Source of the DNA: Woeseiaceae bacterium
GTDB lineage: Bacteria > Pseudomonadota > Gammaproteobacteria > Steroidobacterales > Woeseiaceae
Assembly: GCA_013042375.1 (NCBI GenBank)
Contig: JABDQH010000104.1
Coordinates: forward strand, 1 to 40,154
DNA length: 40,154 nt
Reading direction: 5' to 3'
Shown: piece after piece, positions 1,076-29,703 of the stretch
Layout: every line of letters begins with the position of its first letter
Numbering within the stretch: the first letter of the stretch is position 1
Program-made: the position numbers and the translations under genes
Notes under the pieces: generated by a model
What the model was told of the DNA's origin: nothing
The model's database searches: none
What the model saw: the letters and a program-made list of their open reading frames with translations, nothing else

Positions 1076-2298
1076 AGGACCGGGAATTCGACATCGTCGT
1101 CTATGGAGCGACGGGCTTCACAGGCCGGCTCGTGGCCGAGTACCTGCTCGAGCGCTACGGTACAGGCGGCGATCTCAAGTGGGCCGTCGCCGGGCGCAGC
1201 CCGGGAAAACTGGATGCGCTGAGGAACGAACTGGGTGAGGCGGCGGCCGACCTCCCGAGCGTCGTCGCCGACAGCGGCGACGCCGGCACGCTCGCCGCGC
1301 TTGCCGCCCGCACGCGCGTCGTTCTCACGACTGTCGGTCCCTACGCGTTGTATGGCTCGCAGCTCGTCGCCGCGTGCGTCGATGCAGGCACGGATTACTG
1401 CGACCTCGCGGGCGAAGTCCAGTGGATTCGCGCGATGATCGACAGGCACCACGAGCAGGCGCAGCAGACAGGCGCGCGCATTGTGCACTGCTGCGGATTC
1501 GACTCGATCCCGATGGACATTGGTGCCTGGTTCCTGCAGCAGGAAGCGCACCAGCGCTTCGGCAGCTACTGCAAGAGCATCAAACTGTATGTCAAGGCGA
1601 CCAAGGGAGCGGTAAGCGGCGGCACCGTCGCCAGCATGTCGAACGTGGCCAGGACCGCGCGCGAGGATCGCAGTATTCTGCGGCTGCTCGTTGACCCGTA
1701 CGCACTCAATCCCGAGGGTGAGCGCGATGGGCCCGATGGACGCGACCAGCAGGGCAGCGTCTTCGACGAGGCGACCGGCAGCTGGACGGCGCCGTTCATC
1801 ATGGCGAGCGTCAACACGCGCGTCGTGCGCCGCAGCCACGCGCTGGCCGGATACCCGTGGGGCCAGGACTTCTGCTATGGCGAGACCGTGCTGACCGGCA
1901 AAGGCCTCGGCGGGCGCGCGAAGGCAGCCCTCGTCAGTGGCGGGCTTGCAGGGCTCGCGCTGGGCCTTGCGTACGCGCCGACCCGTGCGCTGCTGCGCCG
2001 CGTTGTGCTGCCGGATCCCGGCGAAGGCCCGGACCGCAAACAACGCGAGAGCGGCTTCTTCAACCTCATGCAACTGGGGACCCTGCCGGATGGCAAGACA
2101 CTGCGCGGCCGCATTACCGGCGATCGCGACCCCGGGTACGGGTCGACGAGCAAGATGCTGGCCGAAGCCGCCGTCTGCCTCGCACTGGACAACCCGGAAT
2201 CGCCCGGCGGCGTCCTGACGCCGGCTGCCGCCATGGCCGCCCCGTTAATCGAGCGGCTGCGCGGCAATGCGGGCCTGACCTTCGATATCGTCGACTAG
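1072..2298 (+). CDS. Saccharopine dehydrogenase-like NAD(P)-binding reductase
   Basis: 408 residues. The N-terminus 'FDIVVYGATGFTGRLVAEYL' is a Rossmann nucleotide-binding motif (GATGFTG), followed by 'WAVAGRSPGKL' and, near residues 138-150, 'IVHCCGFDSIPMDIG'. These are hallmarks of the saccharopine dehydrogenase-like/trans-acting enoyl reductase group, known from mycobacterial lipid pathways and widespread in proteobacteria with unknown substrates. True lysine-pathway saccharopine dehydrogenase is unlikely. It starts inside the stop of the GNAT gene. Its TAG stop shares the CTAG tetranucleotide with the stop of the convergent DUF1684 gene. Confidence 0.85.
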   Translation: MKDREFDIVVYGATGFTGRLVAEYLLERYGTGGDLKWAVAGRSPGKLDALRNELGEAAADLPSVVADSGDAGTLAALAARTRVVLTTVGPYALYGSQLVAACVDAGTDYCDLAGEVQWIRAMIDRHHEQAQQTGARIVHCCGFDSIPMDIGAWFLQQEAHQRFGSYCKSIKLYVKATKGAVSGGTVASMSNVARTAREDRSILRLLVDPYALNPEGERDGPDGRDQQGSVFDEATGSWTAPFIMASVNTRVVRRSHALAGYPWGQDFCYGETVLTGKGLGGRAKAALVSGGLAGLALGLAYAPTRALLRRVVLPDPGEGPDRKQRESGFFNLMQLGTLPDGKTLRGRITGDRDPGYGSTSKMLAEAAVCLALDNPESPGGVLTPAAAMAAPLIERLRGNAGLTFDIVD

Positions 2299-3224
2299 CG
2301 ACTTGCCGTAGCGCTGTAGTGCAGCGCCGGGTCGTACTTTTCCCCCGCCTCCACGCGGATCGGCAGGCGATTGCGGGGTGATGCAACCGGGCAGGTCGAG
2401 AAATCGTTGAACGCGCACGGCGGGCTGTAGGACTTGTTGAAGTCGATGATGAAACGCCCGTCGTCTCCCGGCATATCCGTGTACAGGTAGCGTCCTGCGC
2501 CATACGTGTCGCCCCGGTTGGTCGCGTCGCCGAAGACGAAGAACAGCTGCTCTCCGGCACTCTGTGGCTCGAGTTCGTAGGTCGTCCCGTCGATCTCGAA
2601 AGTGGCGACGCCCGGCGACACCGGGAATTGCTGGAAGCCTTCGATGACCGTATCGACGGTAATCTTGCGGGGCTCATCGTAGCGTTTCAGGACCGCCTCG
2701 ACGCGCAGGGCCGGGTCGATATCGAAGTACGGCAACGGGCCGAAAGACGCCACCCAGGGATGCTCGTAGTCGCGCACGCGCACCGCGAGTTTGCCGCCGC
2801 GCTCGATCACGCTCCAGGCCAGCGACCGATGCGCCGCAATGACGGTTTCGCCCGAGGTATCCGCGGGCATGACGAGCTCGGATGCAGGCATGCCGTCGTG
2901 AGTCACCTCGACGCCCTCCGCGGCCATGAATACGCCGCCTTCGGCCGTTACCCGCAGCTCGCCCACCGTGGCCGCGGCCACGGGCGGCAACAGGATGTCG
3001 CTGTCGGCAGCCGAGCCCATCGAGTAGCTGCCCGCTTCCACCCAGTGCAGACCGACCTGGGTCAGGAAACCGTTCGGCGCGAGAAGCCGTTCCAGGCGTC
3101 CTGCCCGCCACTCCAGGACCTCGTCCGCGTGTGCCGCCGCGTCGATCCCGTCGCCGGCCTGCCCGCAGGCGGCCGTCGCGAGCGACAGCATCGCAAGATA
3201 CGTGCTCAAAATCGTTTTTTTCAT
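2295..3224 (-). CDS. DUF1684 domain lipoprotein
   Basis: 309 residues with signal MKKTILSTYLAML and a probable lipidation Cys20 (ATAAC, not a perfect lipobox). The C-terminal half carries the DUF1684 signature: 'FIIDFNKSYSPPCAFNDF', then 'CPVASPRNRLPIRVEAGEKY', where DUF1684 members have a conserved Cys and NRLP. The biochemical function of the family is not established. It is divergent from typA across a 67-base gap and convergent with the reductase, overlapping it by four bases. Confidence 0.85.
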   Translation of the reverse strand: MKKTILSTYLAMLSLATAACGQAGDGIDAAAHADEVLEWRAGRLERLLAPNGFLTQVGLHWVEAGSYSMGSAADSDILLPPVAAATVGELRVTAEGGVFMAAEGVEVTHDGMPASELVMPADTSGETVIAAHRSLAWSVIERGGKLAVRVRDYEHPWVASFGPLPYFDIDPALRVEAVLKRYDEPRKITVDTVIEGFQQFPVSPGVATFEIDGTTYELEPQSAGEQLFFVFGDATNRGDTYGAGRYLYTDMPGDDGRFIIDFNKSYSPPCAFNDFSTCPVASPRNRLPIRVEAGEKYDPALHYSATASR

Positions 3225-13717: not shown

Positions 13718-14251
13718 GTGACTATGCGTATCTCATTCGAACTCGACGATCACGACCTCAAGCATTTCCGCCTGATCATGGACGAGGCGCGGCGCGCCGC
13801 ACGCCGGATTGCTCCCGAAGATATCGTGGCAGCCGCAGAGGAACTGCTCGAGAGCGTCCCGAAGACCGGCACCCCCGGCTTCATCTCGGGGCGGCTCACG
13901 AAGCTGCGGTTGATGATCCACATGCTTTCCGACATCGAATGGCGTCTGCCCCACCAGGACGCCGCGCGAGTGCTCAATGCGCTCGCATATTTCGCCGAAC
14001 CCGAGGACCTGATCCCGGATAGTATTCCAGCCCTCGGTTTTCTCGACGACGCGATCATGATCGAACTCGTCGTGCGCGAACTCAAGCACGAGATTGAGGC
14101 GTACCAGGATTTCTGCGACTACCGTGAGCGCCTGGCTGCGCGAGGCAGCAGCGCCAAGGCCAGCCGCGAGGACTGGCTCGCGTCGCGTCGCAAGGAACTC
14201 CAGGCACGCATGCGGCGCCGGCGCAAGCGCGGGCTGGGCATCCTGCGCTAG
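13718..14251 (+). CDS. DUF1232 (YkvA-type) domain protein
   Basis: 177 residues from GTG 13718, or 175 from ATG 13724. Near residues 90-115 it has 'ALAYFAEPEDLIPDSIP' then 'LGFLDDAIMI', the core signature of DUF1232, a family of small proteins of unknown function often linked to membranes. The C-terminus is strongly basic (MRRRRKRG). TACCAT lies exactly six bases before the GTG, the spacing seen at other possible leaderless starts in this window. Its TAG stop is the first three bases of a 55-bp repeat. Confidence 0.8.
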   Translation: MTMRISFELDDHDLKHFRLIMDEARRAARRIAPEDIVAAAEELLESVPKTGTPGFISGRLTKLRLMIHMLSDIEWRLPHQDAARVLNALAYFAEPEDLIPDSIPALGFLDDAIMIELVVRELKHEIEAYQDFCDYRERLAARGSSAKASREDWLASRRKELQARMRRRRKRGLGILR

Positions 14252-14303
14252 GCCGCTGCCGCGCATCCCTGTGCTCAGCGGCACAGGGCTTTCCCTGCCC
14301 TAG
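14249..14303. repeat. 55-bp intergenic repeat, copy 1
   Basis: It is 51/55 identical to the element at 25419-25473 and in the same orientation. It runs from the TAG stop of the DUF1232 gene to the CTAG containing the stop of the convergent membrane-protein gene, filling the gap exactly. It holds a perfect 8-bp stem, CCCTGTGC (14267-14274) with GCACAGGG (14281-14288) around a six-base loop, and a second possible stem AGGGC/GCCCT. There is no T-tract on either strand, so it is not a standard intrinsic terminator. Confidence 0.85.
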
Positions 14304-14584
14304 GGCCAGAAATACCAGCCGACGCCGCCCAGCGCCAACCACATGGCGGCCTGCATCCAGTATCGCAAGGCGTGGCGCTTGAGCAGCGCATAGAAACTTG
14401 CTGCCGCCACGATGGTCATACCTACAAAGAGCGCGAAGCTGCGCGTCAGCGGGCCGAACTCGCGCGCAAGGCGCGGATAGTCGTCACCGAGAATCAGTAC
14501 GACGATGATGACAGCCCCAAGGCTGAAAGTGATCGCGAAACTGGAGCCGAGGATGATCAGCGTTATGACGGACAGTGGACGCAT
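14300..14584 (-). CDS. Small inner-membrane protein, unknown
   Basis: 94 residues with three transmembrane helices: 'VITLIILGSSFAITFSLGAV' running into 'IIVVLILG', 'SFALFVGMTIVAAASFYALL' and 'MQAAMWLALGGVGWYFW'. There is no recognisable family. Its stop codon is supplied by the 55-bp repeat. It is divergent from prc across 129 bases. Confidence 0.7.
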   Translation of the reverse strand: MRPLSVITLIILGSSFAITFSLGAVIIVVLILGDDYPRLAREFGPLTRSFALFVGMTIVAAASFYALLKRHALRYWMQAAMWLALGGVGWYFWP

Positions 14585-24524: not shown

Positions 24525-25421
24525 ATGAATCGCGCCACGGTCATCGCCACCTACAGCCGCCGCATGCGCGTGCGCCTCGACGACGGCAGCGAAGTCGATG
24601 CACGCATCAAAGGCAAACGCCTGAAACCGGTTTGCGGTGACGACGTTATCGCCGTCCCGCTTAGCGAAGAAGACGACTGGCTCATAACGGCCGTCGAGGA
24701 ACGGCGCAATGAACTCACGCGCCCGAACACGCGTGGCAAGGTCGAAATTCTCGCGGCCAACCTCGACTACCTGCTCGTCGTTGCGGCGGCGGAGCCGGCC
24801 GCCGACTGGTTTATCGTCGATCGCTACCTGTGTGCCGCCGAACTGATGAAGATCGACGCGGGCGTCGTGTTCAACAAAATCGACGTCAACGCCGACGCCG
24901 CGGCGGCCGCGGCGGAACTCGATACCTACCGCCGCGCGGGCTACGATGCCGTGGCTTGCAGCGCCCTTTCCGGAGACGGTATCGACGAAGTGCGCCGGTT
25001 GCTCGTCGGCCACCGTTCCATCATCGTCGGCCAGTCCGGGGTCGGCAAGTCGAGCATCATCAACTGCCTTCTCGGCGGCGACTTACAAAAGACATCGGCC
25101 GTGTCCGACAAGTCACGCGAGGGGCGTCACACGACCGTCAACTCCATCATGCTGAGCCTGCCGGGCGGCGGCGAAATTATCGATTCACCGGGCGTACGCG
25201 ATTACGCCCCGGCGCTGGAATCCGCGGTGGCCGCAGCGCAGGGCTTTCGCGAGTTTCGCGAACAAGCCAGGCACTGCCGCTTCGCGAACTGCCGCCACCT
25301 TCGCGAACCCGGCTGTGCCGTCAAGGACAAGGTCGAGCACGGCGGGATCAGTGCACGCCGGTACGAAAGCTACAAGCGCATCGTCAACCTGACAGAACAG
25401 CTTACCGAGGGACGGTACTAG
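24525..25421 (+). CDS. rsgA: Ribosome small subunit-dependent GTPase RsgA
   Basis: 298 residues. A circularly permuted GTPase acting in late 30S maturation. The motif order G4-G1-G3 is visible: NKID (117-120), GQSGVGKSS (169-177), DSPG (220-223). An N-terminal OB domain precedes it, and the C-terminal zinc site C251, C256, H258, C264 follows. It is somewhat shorter than E. coli RsgA (350), mainly at the N-terminus. The start at 24525 lacks a Shine-Dalgarno sequence and sits six bases after TATACT. Its TAG stop begins repeat copy 2. Confidence 0.96.
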   Translation: MNRATVIATYSRRMRVRLDDGSEVDARIKGKRLKPVCGDDVIAVPLSEEDDWLITAVEERRNELTRPNTRGKVEILAANLDYLLVVAAAEPAADWFIVDRYLCAAELMKIDAGVVFNKIDVNADAAAAAAELDTYRRAGYDAVACSALSGDGIDEVRRLLVGHRSIIVGQSGVGKSSIINCLLGGDLQKTSAVSDKSREGRHTTVNSIMLSLPGGGEIIDSPGVRDYAPALESAVAAAQGFREFREQARHCRFANCRHLREPGCAVKDKVEHGGISARRYESYKRIVNLTEQLTEGRY

Positions 25422-25473
25422 GCCGCTGCCGCACATCCCTGTGCTCTGCGGCACAGGGCTATCCTTGCCCTAG
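25419..25473. repeat. 55-bp intergenic repeat, copy 2
   Basis: Four substitutions relative to the copy at 14249 (at 25433, 25447, 25461 and 25465). The perfect stem CCCTGTGC/GCACAGGG is kept (25437-25444 with 25451-25458), with one change in the loop. It spans exactly from the rsgA TAG to the CTAG holding the stop of convergent hinT. Confidence 0.85.
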
Positions 25474-28421: not shown

Positions 28422-28527
<106 letters not shown>

Positions 28528-28569: not shown

Positions 28570-29526
28570 TCAGCCCCAGAGATGCCTGTCCTTGGAGATC
28601 ACCTGCGCCGACGAGCCCACGATGAGCGGATCCGGACCCTGCACGACGCGCCGGTCCTTGTCCGGGTAATCGAGCGTCGAAAGGAAATGCTGCATGCAGT
28701 TGAGCCGTGCCCGCTTCTTGTCATCTGACTTGATGATCGTCCAGGGCGCATCGGCCGTATCCGTGTAGAAGAACATGGCTTCCTTGGCCTCGGTGTATTC
28801 GGGCCACATACCCTGGGATTTCTCATCGATGGGGCTCAGCTTCCATTGCTTGAGCGGGTCGTGGGTCCGCGCCTCGAAGCGCCGCCGCTGCTCGTCCTGG
28901 GTGACCGAGAACCAGTACTTGTACAGGCGGATTCCCGAACGAACGAGCATGCGCTCGAGTTCGGGCACCTGGCGCATGAACTCGAGGTACTCGAGCGAAT
29001 CGCAGAAACCCATGACGCGCTCGACGCCCGCCCGGTTGTACCAGGAGCGGTCGAAGAACACCATCTCACCTCTTGTAGGCAGCTGCTTGATGTAGCGCTG
29101 GAAATACCATTCGCCGCGTTCATGATCCGTCGGTTTCTCGAGCGCCACGACGCGCGCGGCACGCGGGTTCAGGTGCTCCATGAAGCGCTTGATGGTCCCA
29201 CCCTTGCCGGCCGCGTCGCGCCCCTCGAACATTACGATGACTTTCTGGCCCGTCATCTTGACCCAGTTCTGCACCTTGAGCAGCTCGACCTGGAGCTCCT
29301 CCTTGTGCCGCTGGTAGACGGGGCGCCGGATCTTGGTCTTGTACGGGTAGACGCCTTCGCGAAACAGCTCCTTGATTCTCTCCGGGCTGTGGCGCAATTC
29401 GCCGAACAGGTGCGAGGGATTGACGCGCTCGGTCTCCGCAGGCTGCGCCTTGTCCTCGTCAGGTTTCGACTGCTTGTCATCGATGCTGACGACGGCTTCC
29501 TTCTGGCTGGCTTTCGGGTCGGTCAT
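28570..29526 (-). CDS. ppk2: Polyphosphate kinase 2 (PPK2)
   Basis: 318 residues. PPK2 enzymes transfer phosphate between polyphosphate and nucleotides. Motifs are Walker A 'FEGRDAAGKGGTIKRF' (about 100-115), 'ERGEWYFQRYIKQLPTRGE' and the Walker B/lid 'FFDRSWYNRAGVERVMGF'. This is the single-domain form; whether it prefers GDP, ADP or NMPs cannot be read safely. The first 45 residues are a charged, disordered extension. The ATG at 29526 is preferred over TTG 29541. It is read towards the 4.5S RNA gene. Confidence 0.93.
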   Translation of the reverse strand: MTDPKASQKEAVVSIDDKQSKPDEDKAQPAETERVNPSHLFGELRHSPERIKELFREGVYPYKTKIRRPVYQRHKEELQVELLKVQNWVKMTGQKVIVMFEGRDAAGKGGTIKRFMEHLNPRAARVVALEKPTDHERGEWYFQRYIKQLPTRGEMVFFDRSWYNRAGVERVMGFCDSLEYLEFMRQVPELERMLVRSGIRLYKYWFSVTQDEQRRRFEARTHDPLKQWKLSPIDEKSQGMWPEYTEAKEAMFFYTDTADAPWTIIKSDDKKRARLNCMQHFLSTLDYPDKDRRVVQGPDPLIVGSSAQVISKDRHLWG

Positions 29527-29582
29527 TTGTGTGTTCCGCAAGGCTAAAACTATTTCGGTATTTTGTACTTGTAAGCGGCAGA

Positions 29583-29590: not shown

Positions 29591-29628
29591 GGGAAATTAC
29601 ACTATTGCCCGGAACCTGGCACGGGCAC

Positions 29629-29659
29629 GCCGCTCCCGGCCATCCATGGCCTCCGCGGC
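29629..29659. repeat. Nested inverted repeat
   Basis: GCCGC and GCGGC outer arms enclose GGCCAT/ATGGCC inner arms around a 2-base centre. It could form a hairpin in the ppk2 upstream region or a second structure after the aldolase terminator. No T-tract. Confidence 0.5.
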
Positions 29660-29683
29660 ATAAGCACATCCCTGTACAAAGAA

Positions 29684-29703
29684 AAGGGGCCCCGGGGCCC
29701 CTT
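29684..29703 (-). terminator. Intrinsic terminator of the aldolase gene
   Basis: A perfect 20-bp palindrome of AAGGGGCCCC and its complement, followed on the minus strand by TTCTTTG. It begins about 28 bases after the aldolase stop, the expected place. The stem is very GC-rich; the T-tract is short. Confidence 0.75.

What the first reader, a model, noticed from the sequence alone, without database searches (positions are those of the whole stretch)
14249..14303. Two 55-bp repeats that fill convergent gene gaps and supply both stop codons
The elements at 14249-14303 and 25419-25473 are 51/55 identical and both start with TAG and end with CTAG. In each place the left TAG is the stop of the forward gene (DUF1232, rsgA) and the right CTA is the stop of the reverse gene (membrane protein, hinT). 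The inner 8-bp stem is fully conserved while changes fall in the loop and elsewhere, which suggests selection on structure. The element appears to work as a compact two-way gene end: stop codons on both strands plus a hairpin. No such family is known to me. It could be a REP-like mobile repeat that inserts at or replaces gene ends, or a bidirectional transcription end.
Basis: partly seen in the sequence, partly recalled or inferred. Interest (0 to 1): 0.72.

Follow-up and report, generated by a model that had tools for sequence, protein, structure and literature searches.

The report
Mobile twin-hairpin repeat at stop codons
The two 55-letter repeats are copies of a short twin-hairpin repeat, scattered through many related bacteria and probably mobile, that settles right at the ends of genes; known repeats do something similar, so it is a new variant rather than a new kind of gene end.

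Summary
In detail: two 55-bp copies, 51/55 identical, CTAG at both ends, a stop codon in each CTAG. They belong to a larger family: 16 model hits in the draft genome, and hits in 79 of 369 sampled genomes of its class.

HinT ends in TAG in 24 of 28 relatives read, none with the element there, so its stop was not supplied. In 9 of 24 scorable relatives the HinT and RsgA stops share one 4-bp word; insertion at such a CTAG would give what is seen. The nearest relatives lack a shared word, so this history, and the origin of RsgA's stop, stay open. At ftsZ, 9 of 70 ends are filled, at least 7 changes on the tree, FtsZ unchanged. Other subfamilies follow terminator T-tracts or sit in REP loops.

Best reading: a REP-like mobile palindrome with unknown mobiliser and neither GTAG nor CGTC tag. 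No sequence sign that it is a terminator. GGA loops resemble CsrA sites, without sign of RNA-level selection. That REP ends often provide TAG stops is published.

The parts
14248..14303 (-). copy 1 of the twin-hairpin element with CTAG at both ends (sense = minus strand, hairpin B first)
14248..14251 (.). left CTAG; TAG stop of the DUF1232 gene
14252..14282 (-). outer stem (14252-14256 with 14278-14282) around hairpin A (14261-14265 with 14270-14274; one G-T pair on the + strand), GGA loop on the minus strand
14285..14301 (-). hairpin B (14285-14289 with 14297-14301), GGA in its loop on the minus strand
14300..14303 (.). right CTAG; stop (CTA on +) of the 94-aa ORF
25418..25473 (-). copy 2 of the element with CTAG at both ends
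25418..25421 (.). left CTAG; TAG stop of rsgA
25422..25452 (-). outer stem (25422-25426 with 25448-25452) around hairpin A (25431-25435 with 25440-25444)
25455..25471 (-). hairpin B (25455-25459 with 25467-25471)
25470..25473 (.). right CTAG; stop of hinT
29625..29681 (-). third, diverged copy (T-run subfamily), behind a GC-rich hairpin plus T-rich tract on the minus strand (about 29678-29703) and upstream of the PPK2 gene (28570-29541, -)
   Evidence: the terminator scan did not call this hairpin

Best explanation
The 55-bp repeats are insertions of a short (about 48 nt plus CTAG) non-autonomous, REP-like mobile palindrome made of two GGA-loop hairpins. Shown: it is dispersed, patchy at an orthologous site (ftsZ) and structurally constrained; in the own genome the CTAG subfamily sits with its hairpin-B end at the TAG stop of a gene. 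Inferred: it inserts at CTAG (or TTAG) and leaves that word at both ends. Inferred: it moves through single-stranded DNA hairpins cut by an HUH/RAYT-like or other enzyme that I could not identify, and persists because gene ends, terminator T-tracts and REP loops are harmless places.
For: Copies (own genome counted in each): 16 below E=1e-5 in the own genome, 63 of 296 genomes of the order, 79 of 369 of the class. Covariation: outer stem and hairpin A 96.7% paired, 35 two-sided cells versus 7.5 in shuffles, 0/500 (42 of 52 chosen copies). Hairpin B found in 144 of 171 copies, GGA in 123, versus 20 and 2.2 in shuffles. Site: in 8 of 8 CTAG copies of the genome the sense-upstream gene stops at the left CTAG (for six; for the two window copies, which that script missed). 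HinT TAG is present in 24 of 28 relatives without the element; HinT and RsgA stops share one YTAR word in 9 of 24 scorable relatives; the own genome has 48 nt between them, 52 more than a shared word = element + CTAG. CTAG: 21 in the window versus 137 expected from composition, 11 at predicted stops. Tandem copies with 51-nt period.
Against: No insertion was caught between near-identical genomes. At hinT the near relatives do not have a shared CTAG: the three most similar HinT (90, 86, 86%) have stops 12 nt apart (two CTAGs), abutting (CTAG then TCA) and 8 nt apart (two CTAGs); of G000's neighbours on the FtsZ tree, G029 abuts, G006 is 11 nt apart, G251 was not scored. From an abutting CTAG-TCAG the right CTAG, RsgA's stop, would have come with the element or by mutation; from two CTAGs the element would have replaced a spacer. 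The ftsZ data cannot separate 'TAG was the target' from 'the element brought TAG'. For the DUF1232 site no shared CTAG was seen in the relatives fetched. No mobiliser: 24 Y1_Tnp matches, none with the element directly at its flank; known IS200/IS605 members do not make larger target duplications (PMC2817692, passage). No terminal inverted repeats. 8 of 8 at stops is more than a plain CTAG target predicts (7 of 17 other CTAG sites of the window, hand-picked gene list).
Confidence: 0.68

Rival explanations
1. A GTAG-type REP subfamily moved by a RAYT, with the tag degenerated to CTAG.
For: Hairpins, gene-end location and TAG-stop overlap as in GTAG REPs (PMC3733652). About 31 of 202 copies are in REP-like loops (loose pattern). 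Y1_Tnp matches in 15 of 24 genomes chosen for carrying the element.
Against: Flank is Y-TAG or a T-run, not GTAG. Four Y1_Tnp loci have GTAG/GTGG REPs nearby but not this element; the one nearby copy (G060) is about 1 kb off, inside a REP. 9 of the 24 genomes have no Y1_Tnp match, several of them incomplete.
Confidence: 0.2
2. A conserved RNA element: a portable 3'-UTR module whose two GGA-loop hairpins bind CsrA/RsmA and tune or sponge the regulator.
For: xGGA in the centre of 42 of 43 listed matches of nine genomes that I picked for member-like matches, from a search with stem and loop left free; 178 of 185 mined copies (most came from searches that included the loop). ACAGGGAUGU and CAGGACG agree with the CsrA consensus RUACARGGAUGU (recalled; the string is in 17 CsrA papers, listing) and with CsrB repeats (recalled). 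Orientation relative to the upstream gene: 6 of 6 informative copies (two of the eight have stops at both ends).
Against: No G-U excess on either strand: 12 G-U in sense versus 12 A-C over 183 copies. T-run copies lie behind terminators. CsrA was not found in the own draft (84% complete) nor in G003, G008, G018, which also carry copies; found in 23 of 30 genomes.
Confidence: 0.13
3. A bidirectional transcription terminator or mRNA 3'-end stabiliser selected at convergent gene ends.
For: Hairpins right after stop codons; the right-hand neighbour points towards the element in 8 of 8 copies, in 3 of them from 361-549 nt away.
Against: No terminator-like call inside the copies. 61 of 70 ftsZ ends do without it. 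Other copies follow a ready-made terminator-like hairpin (28 of 34 T-run copies) or sit in REP loops.
Confidence: 0.08

Closest known systems
GTAG- and CGTC-tagged REPs (Di Nocera et al. 2013, PMC3733652; parts 1-2 of 8 and passages seen)
   Same: short dispersed palindromes, uni- or convergent gene ends, complementary stem changes, ends that often give TAG stops, no dedicated transposase known for the CGTC type
   Different: two hairpins with conserved GGA loops, no GTAG or CGTC tag, CTAG/TTAG or T-run flank, longer than 20-40 bp
RAYT-associated REPs/BIMEs (Nunvar et al. 2010, PMC2817692; start of abstract and passages seen)
   Same: hairpin repeats, clusters, gene ends
   Different: no Y1_Tnp gene with this element directly at its flank among 24 loci; the arrays seen are head-to-tail, not alternating
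MITEs (NEMIS, ERIC, YPAL and others, as named in PMC3733652)
   Same: non-autonomous, fold into hairpins, lie next to genes, a short word at both ends
   Different: about 50 nt, no terminal inverted repeats
CsrB/RsmZ-type GGA-hairpin RNAs (recalled)
   Same: repeated GGA-loop hairpins
   Different: dispersed at gene ends, no sRNA gene shown, no Rfam match at the elements of the window or of six loci

Membership tests
REP (GTAG/CGTC super-families) | dispersed short palindrome in many copies, mostly intergenic | tested here: met
   copy number in the own draft is moderate (16)
REP (GTAG/CGTC super-families) | terminal GTAG or CGTC tag | tested here: not met
   ends are CTAG/TTAG in the YTAG group, T-run/GTT or others elsewhere; CGTC does occur at the antisense start of some tandem units but not in the window copies
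RAYT-associated REP | RAYT gene flanked by the repeat | tested here: not met
   24 Y1_Tnp loci of 24 chosen genomes, flanks up to 1.5 kb; many genomes incomplete
MITE | terminal inverted repeats | tested here: not met
   sense ends GGCNNGG... and ...CAGCGGC are not inverted repeats
MITE | target-site duplication | tested here: inconclusive
   CTAG at both ends and one shared YTAR word in 9 of 24 scorable relatives, but not in the nearest ones
Intrinsic terminator | GC hairpin directly followed by a U-tract | tested here: not met
   the two terminator-like calls lie outside the element, at 14316-14341
CsrA-binding RNA | GGA in hairpin loop | tested here: met
CsrA-binding RNA | transcribed and bound by CsrA | not testable with these tools
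   needs RNA and binding data; no G-U asymmetry
Rfam family | covariance-model match | tested here: not met
   window at gathering threshold and six loci up to E=1

The most novel reading that the evidence does not exclude
A class-wide family of mobile twin hairpins that lands on stop codons and terminator tails and thereby spreads ready-made CsrA-binding sites to the 3' ends of genes, so that a selfish repeat rewires or sponges a global regulator.
Probability: 0.12. Interest if true: 0.8.

Novelty: new variant of a known kind. Interest (0 to 1): 0.5.

Why it matters
It offers an explanation of how a repeat can seem to supply stop codons to two convergent genes at once: it lands in a CTAG stop word and leaves the word at both ends. 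It defines a testable family of small mobile palindromes, seen in 79 of 369 sampled genomes of the class, with safe-harbour sites (stop codons, terminator tails, REP loops) and conserved GGA loops that raise a direct question about CsrA or a hairpin-reading enzyme.

Tried and rejected
Terminator: no terminator-like call in the copies. RNA-level selection from G-U asymmetry: none (12 versus 12 over 183 copies kept for a GGA loop and at most 5 substitutions, looser, G-U 18 versus A-C 39, of which 21 A-C are in the top pair of hairpin A, which I left out). RAYT as mobiliser: no flanking association; two own RAYT-like genes (L011, L012) have other palindromes near. Phage, plasmid, viral contigs: no match. 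Published record: four sequence words gave five papers, none on this by title; searches listed no paper that by title or start of abstract describes this family. Only open-licence PMC text is searched, so absence from print is not shown. An alignment in mixed orientation (A1) was replaced by A2. Of 202 copies 64 fell in no site class, and the 202 include a few evident chance matches; classes come from loose patterns. The class search scored at most 15 candidates a genome, so its copy numbers are lower bounds. The 118 of 396 genomes include chance matches: its reversed control also matches, above all in family f10.

Full report
What is there. The two elements are as described: 55 bp, 51 identical, CTAG at both ends, four gene ends in those CTAGs. 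Pfam names three of the four flanking genes: DUF1232, RsgA GTPase, HIT domain (HinT); the fourth, 94 aa, has no hit.

Family. A 22-nt inner pattern with up to 3 mismatches finds nine places in the own genome (120 contigs, 84% complete): seven CTAG-type copies and two of a related type with AA-flanks. A covariance model of these nine (R1) gives 16 hits below E=1e-5 (150 of 556 first-look candidates scored). The same model hits 21 of 60 genomes and 63 of 296 of the order; a second model (R2, 42 chosen copies) hits 79 of 369 of the class, 63 of 271 genera; the own genome is counted in each. An exact 27-nt motif gives 78 stretches in named genomes, among them Woeseiaceae, Chromatiales, Halieaceae (and Luminiphilus syltensis, NOR5-3), Marinobacterium, Sedimenticola, with two spirochaete MAGs and one 'Halobacteria' MAG that may be binning errors. 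No match in viral contigs, phages or plasmids.

Structure. On 42 of the 52 diverse copies (aligned) the outer stem and hairpin A are 96.7% paired, five pairs change on both sides, 0 of 500 shuffles reach this. Hairpin B was not part of the mining pattern and is found in 144 of 171 unique copies, GGA in 123, against 20 and 2.2 in shuffled sequence; arms swapped between copies pair in about 15 of 144.

Where it sits. Of 202 unique copies, rough classes are: tandem 55, T-run 34 (28 of them with a hairpin of at least 5 pairs directly before the T run, as in an intrinsic terminator), REP loop 31, YTAG 18, other 64. In the own genome the eight CTAG-type copies (seven plus the shortened L027) have the sense-upstream gene stopping in the left CTAG in 8 of 8; the right neighbour points towards the element in 8 of 8, in three cases from 361-549 nt away (for L015 and L017 the script missed HinT and the 94-aa gene, shown). 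Two of the eight have stops at both ends, so orientation is informative in six, all alike.

Does it supply the stops? HinT: loci of 30 of the 67 matching genomes were fetched. In the own genome the HinT and RsgA stops are 48 nt apart. Of 29 relatives one gave no HinT end; of the other 28, HinT ends in TAG in 24, and by eye none has the element there. RsgA's end could be scored in 24: in 9 the two stops share one word (CTAG in six, TTAG or TTAA in three), in 4 they abut, in 11 they are 5-17 nt apart. HinT ends in WPPG in all 28 and in the own genome. So HinT's TAG exists without the element, and 52 extra nt (48 + CTAG) would turn a shared CTAG into the arrangement seen. Against this, the three most similar HinT genes have stops 12 nt apart, abutting, and 8 nt apart; of the neighbours on the FtsZ tree G029 abuts, G006 is 11 nt apart, G251 was not scored. 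For the DUF1232 site 30 of 69 matching genomes were fetched (29 relatives); DUF1232 ends in TAG in some of them, but I saw no shared CTAG, so the same history is only inferred there.

ftsZ. In 70 FtsZ ends (69 genomes of the genus, one with two) 9 carry the element right after the stop, assigned by eye; 61 do not, a few of these with remnants (G028, G184). The FtsZ end (..RRQAD) is unchanged. A tree of 69 FtsZ rows needs 8 gains or losses, 7 forced by starred branches. G017, G016 and G008 hold a TTAG-flanked copy of the other type, G002 and others a CTAG type, which argues for repeated arrival.

Why stops. CTAG occurs 21 times in the window, 137 expected from composition, 30 from a Markov model; 11 of 21 are at predicted stops, and 2295-2298 is a CTAG shared by two convergent ORFs (gene list chosen by hand). 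Without the four element ends, 7 of 17 are stops, so 8 of 8 copies at stops needs selection or a longer target besides.

Mechanism and rivals. No transposase was linked: 24 Y1_Tnp matches in 15 of 24 genomes chosen for carrying the element; four loci have GTAG or GTGG REPs near the gene, none has this element directly at the flank, one copy lies about 1 kb off. G-U versus A-C changes are 12 to 12, no sign of strand-specific RNA selection; the CsrA-like loops remain unexplained. CsrA is found in 23 of 30 genomes, not in the own draft. Terminator function has no sequence support.

Known or new. PMC3733652 (parts 1-2 of 8 and passages seen; [quoted passage not shown] The present family differs in tag, twin GGA-loop structure, sites and lack of a linked RAYT. 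I found no description of it, which cover only open-licence text. I file it as a new variant of REP-like repeats.

Noticed in passing
window 2295-2298: A single palindromic CTAG that is the stop of both convergent predicted ORFs (1072-2298 + and 2295-3224 -): an empty site of the kind the element may use.
   Followed up: partly
window 28425-28521: Bacterial small SRP RNA on the minus strand (Rfam RF00169).
   Followed up: no
e.g. L098-L103 (G253), L131-L133 (G122), L135 (G159): Copies of the T-run subfamily sit inside the loop of GTAG-REP-like hairpins (GTAGGAGGGCC-TTT-element-AGGCCCGA), so composite REPs seem to be spread in these genomes.
   Followed up: partly
L011, L012 (own genome): RAYT-like genes have palindromes of the type GGTGACTGACACC near their ends rather than GTAG REPs.
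   Followed up: no
L431-L440, L443, L444 (G519): In a one-contig genome the twin hairpin is part of a larger dispersed repeat with further hairpins and TAA/TTA-like ends.
   Followed up: no
L276-L305, L357-L396: A GC-rich hairpin (CCGGCCCGG type) lies between ftsZ and the following gene in most species looked at.
   Followed up: no
L109, L110, L119-L121: Contigs end within or next to element copies, so drafts probably undercount them.
   Followed up: no
L146, L157, L152: Exact motif in two spirochaete MAGs and one 'Halobacteria' MAG: transfer or binning error.
   Followed up: no
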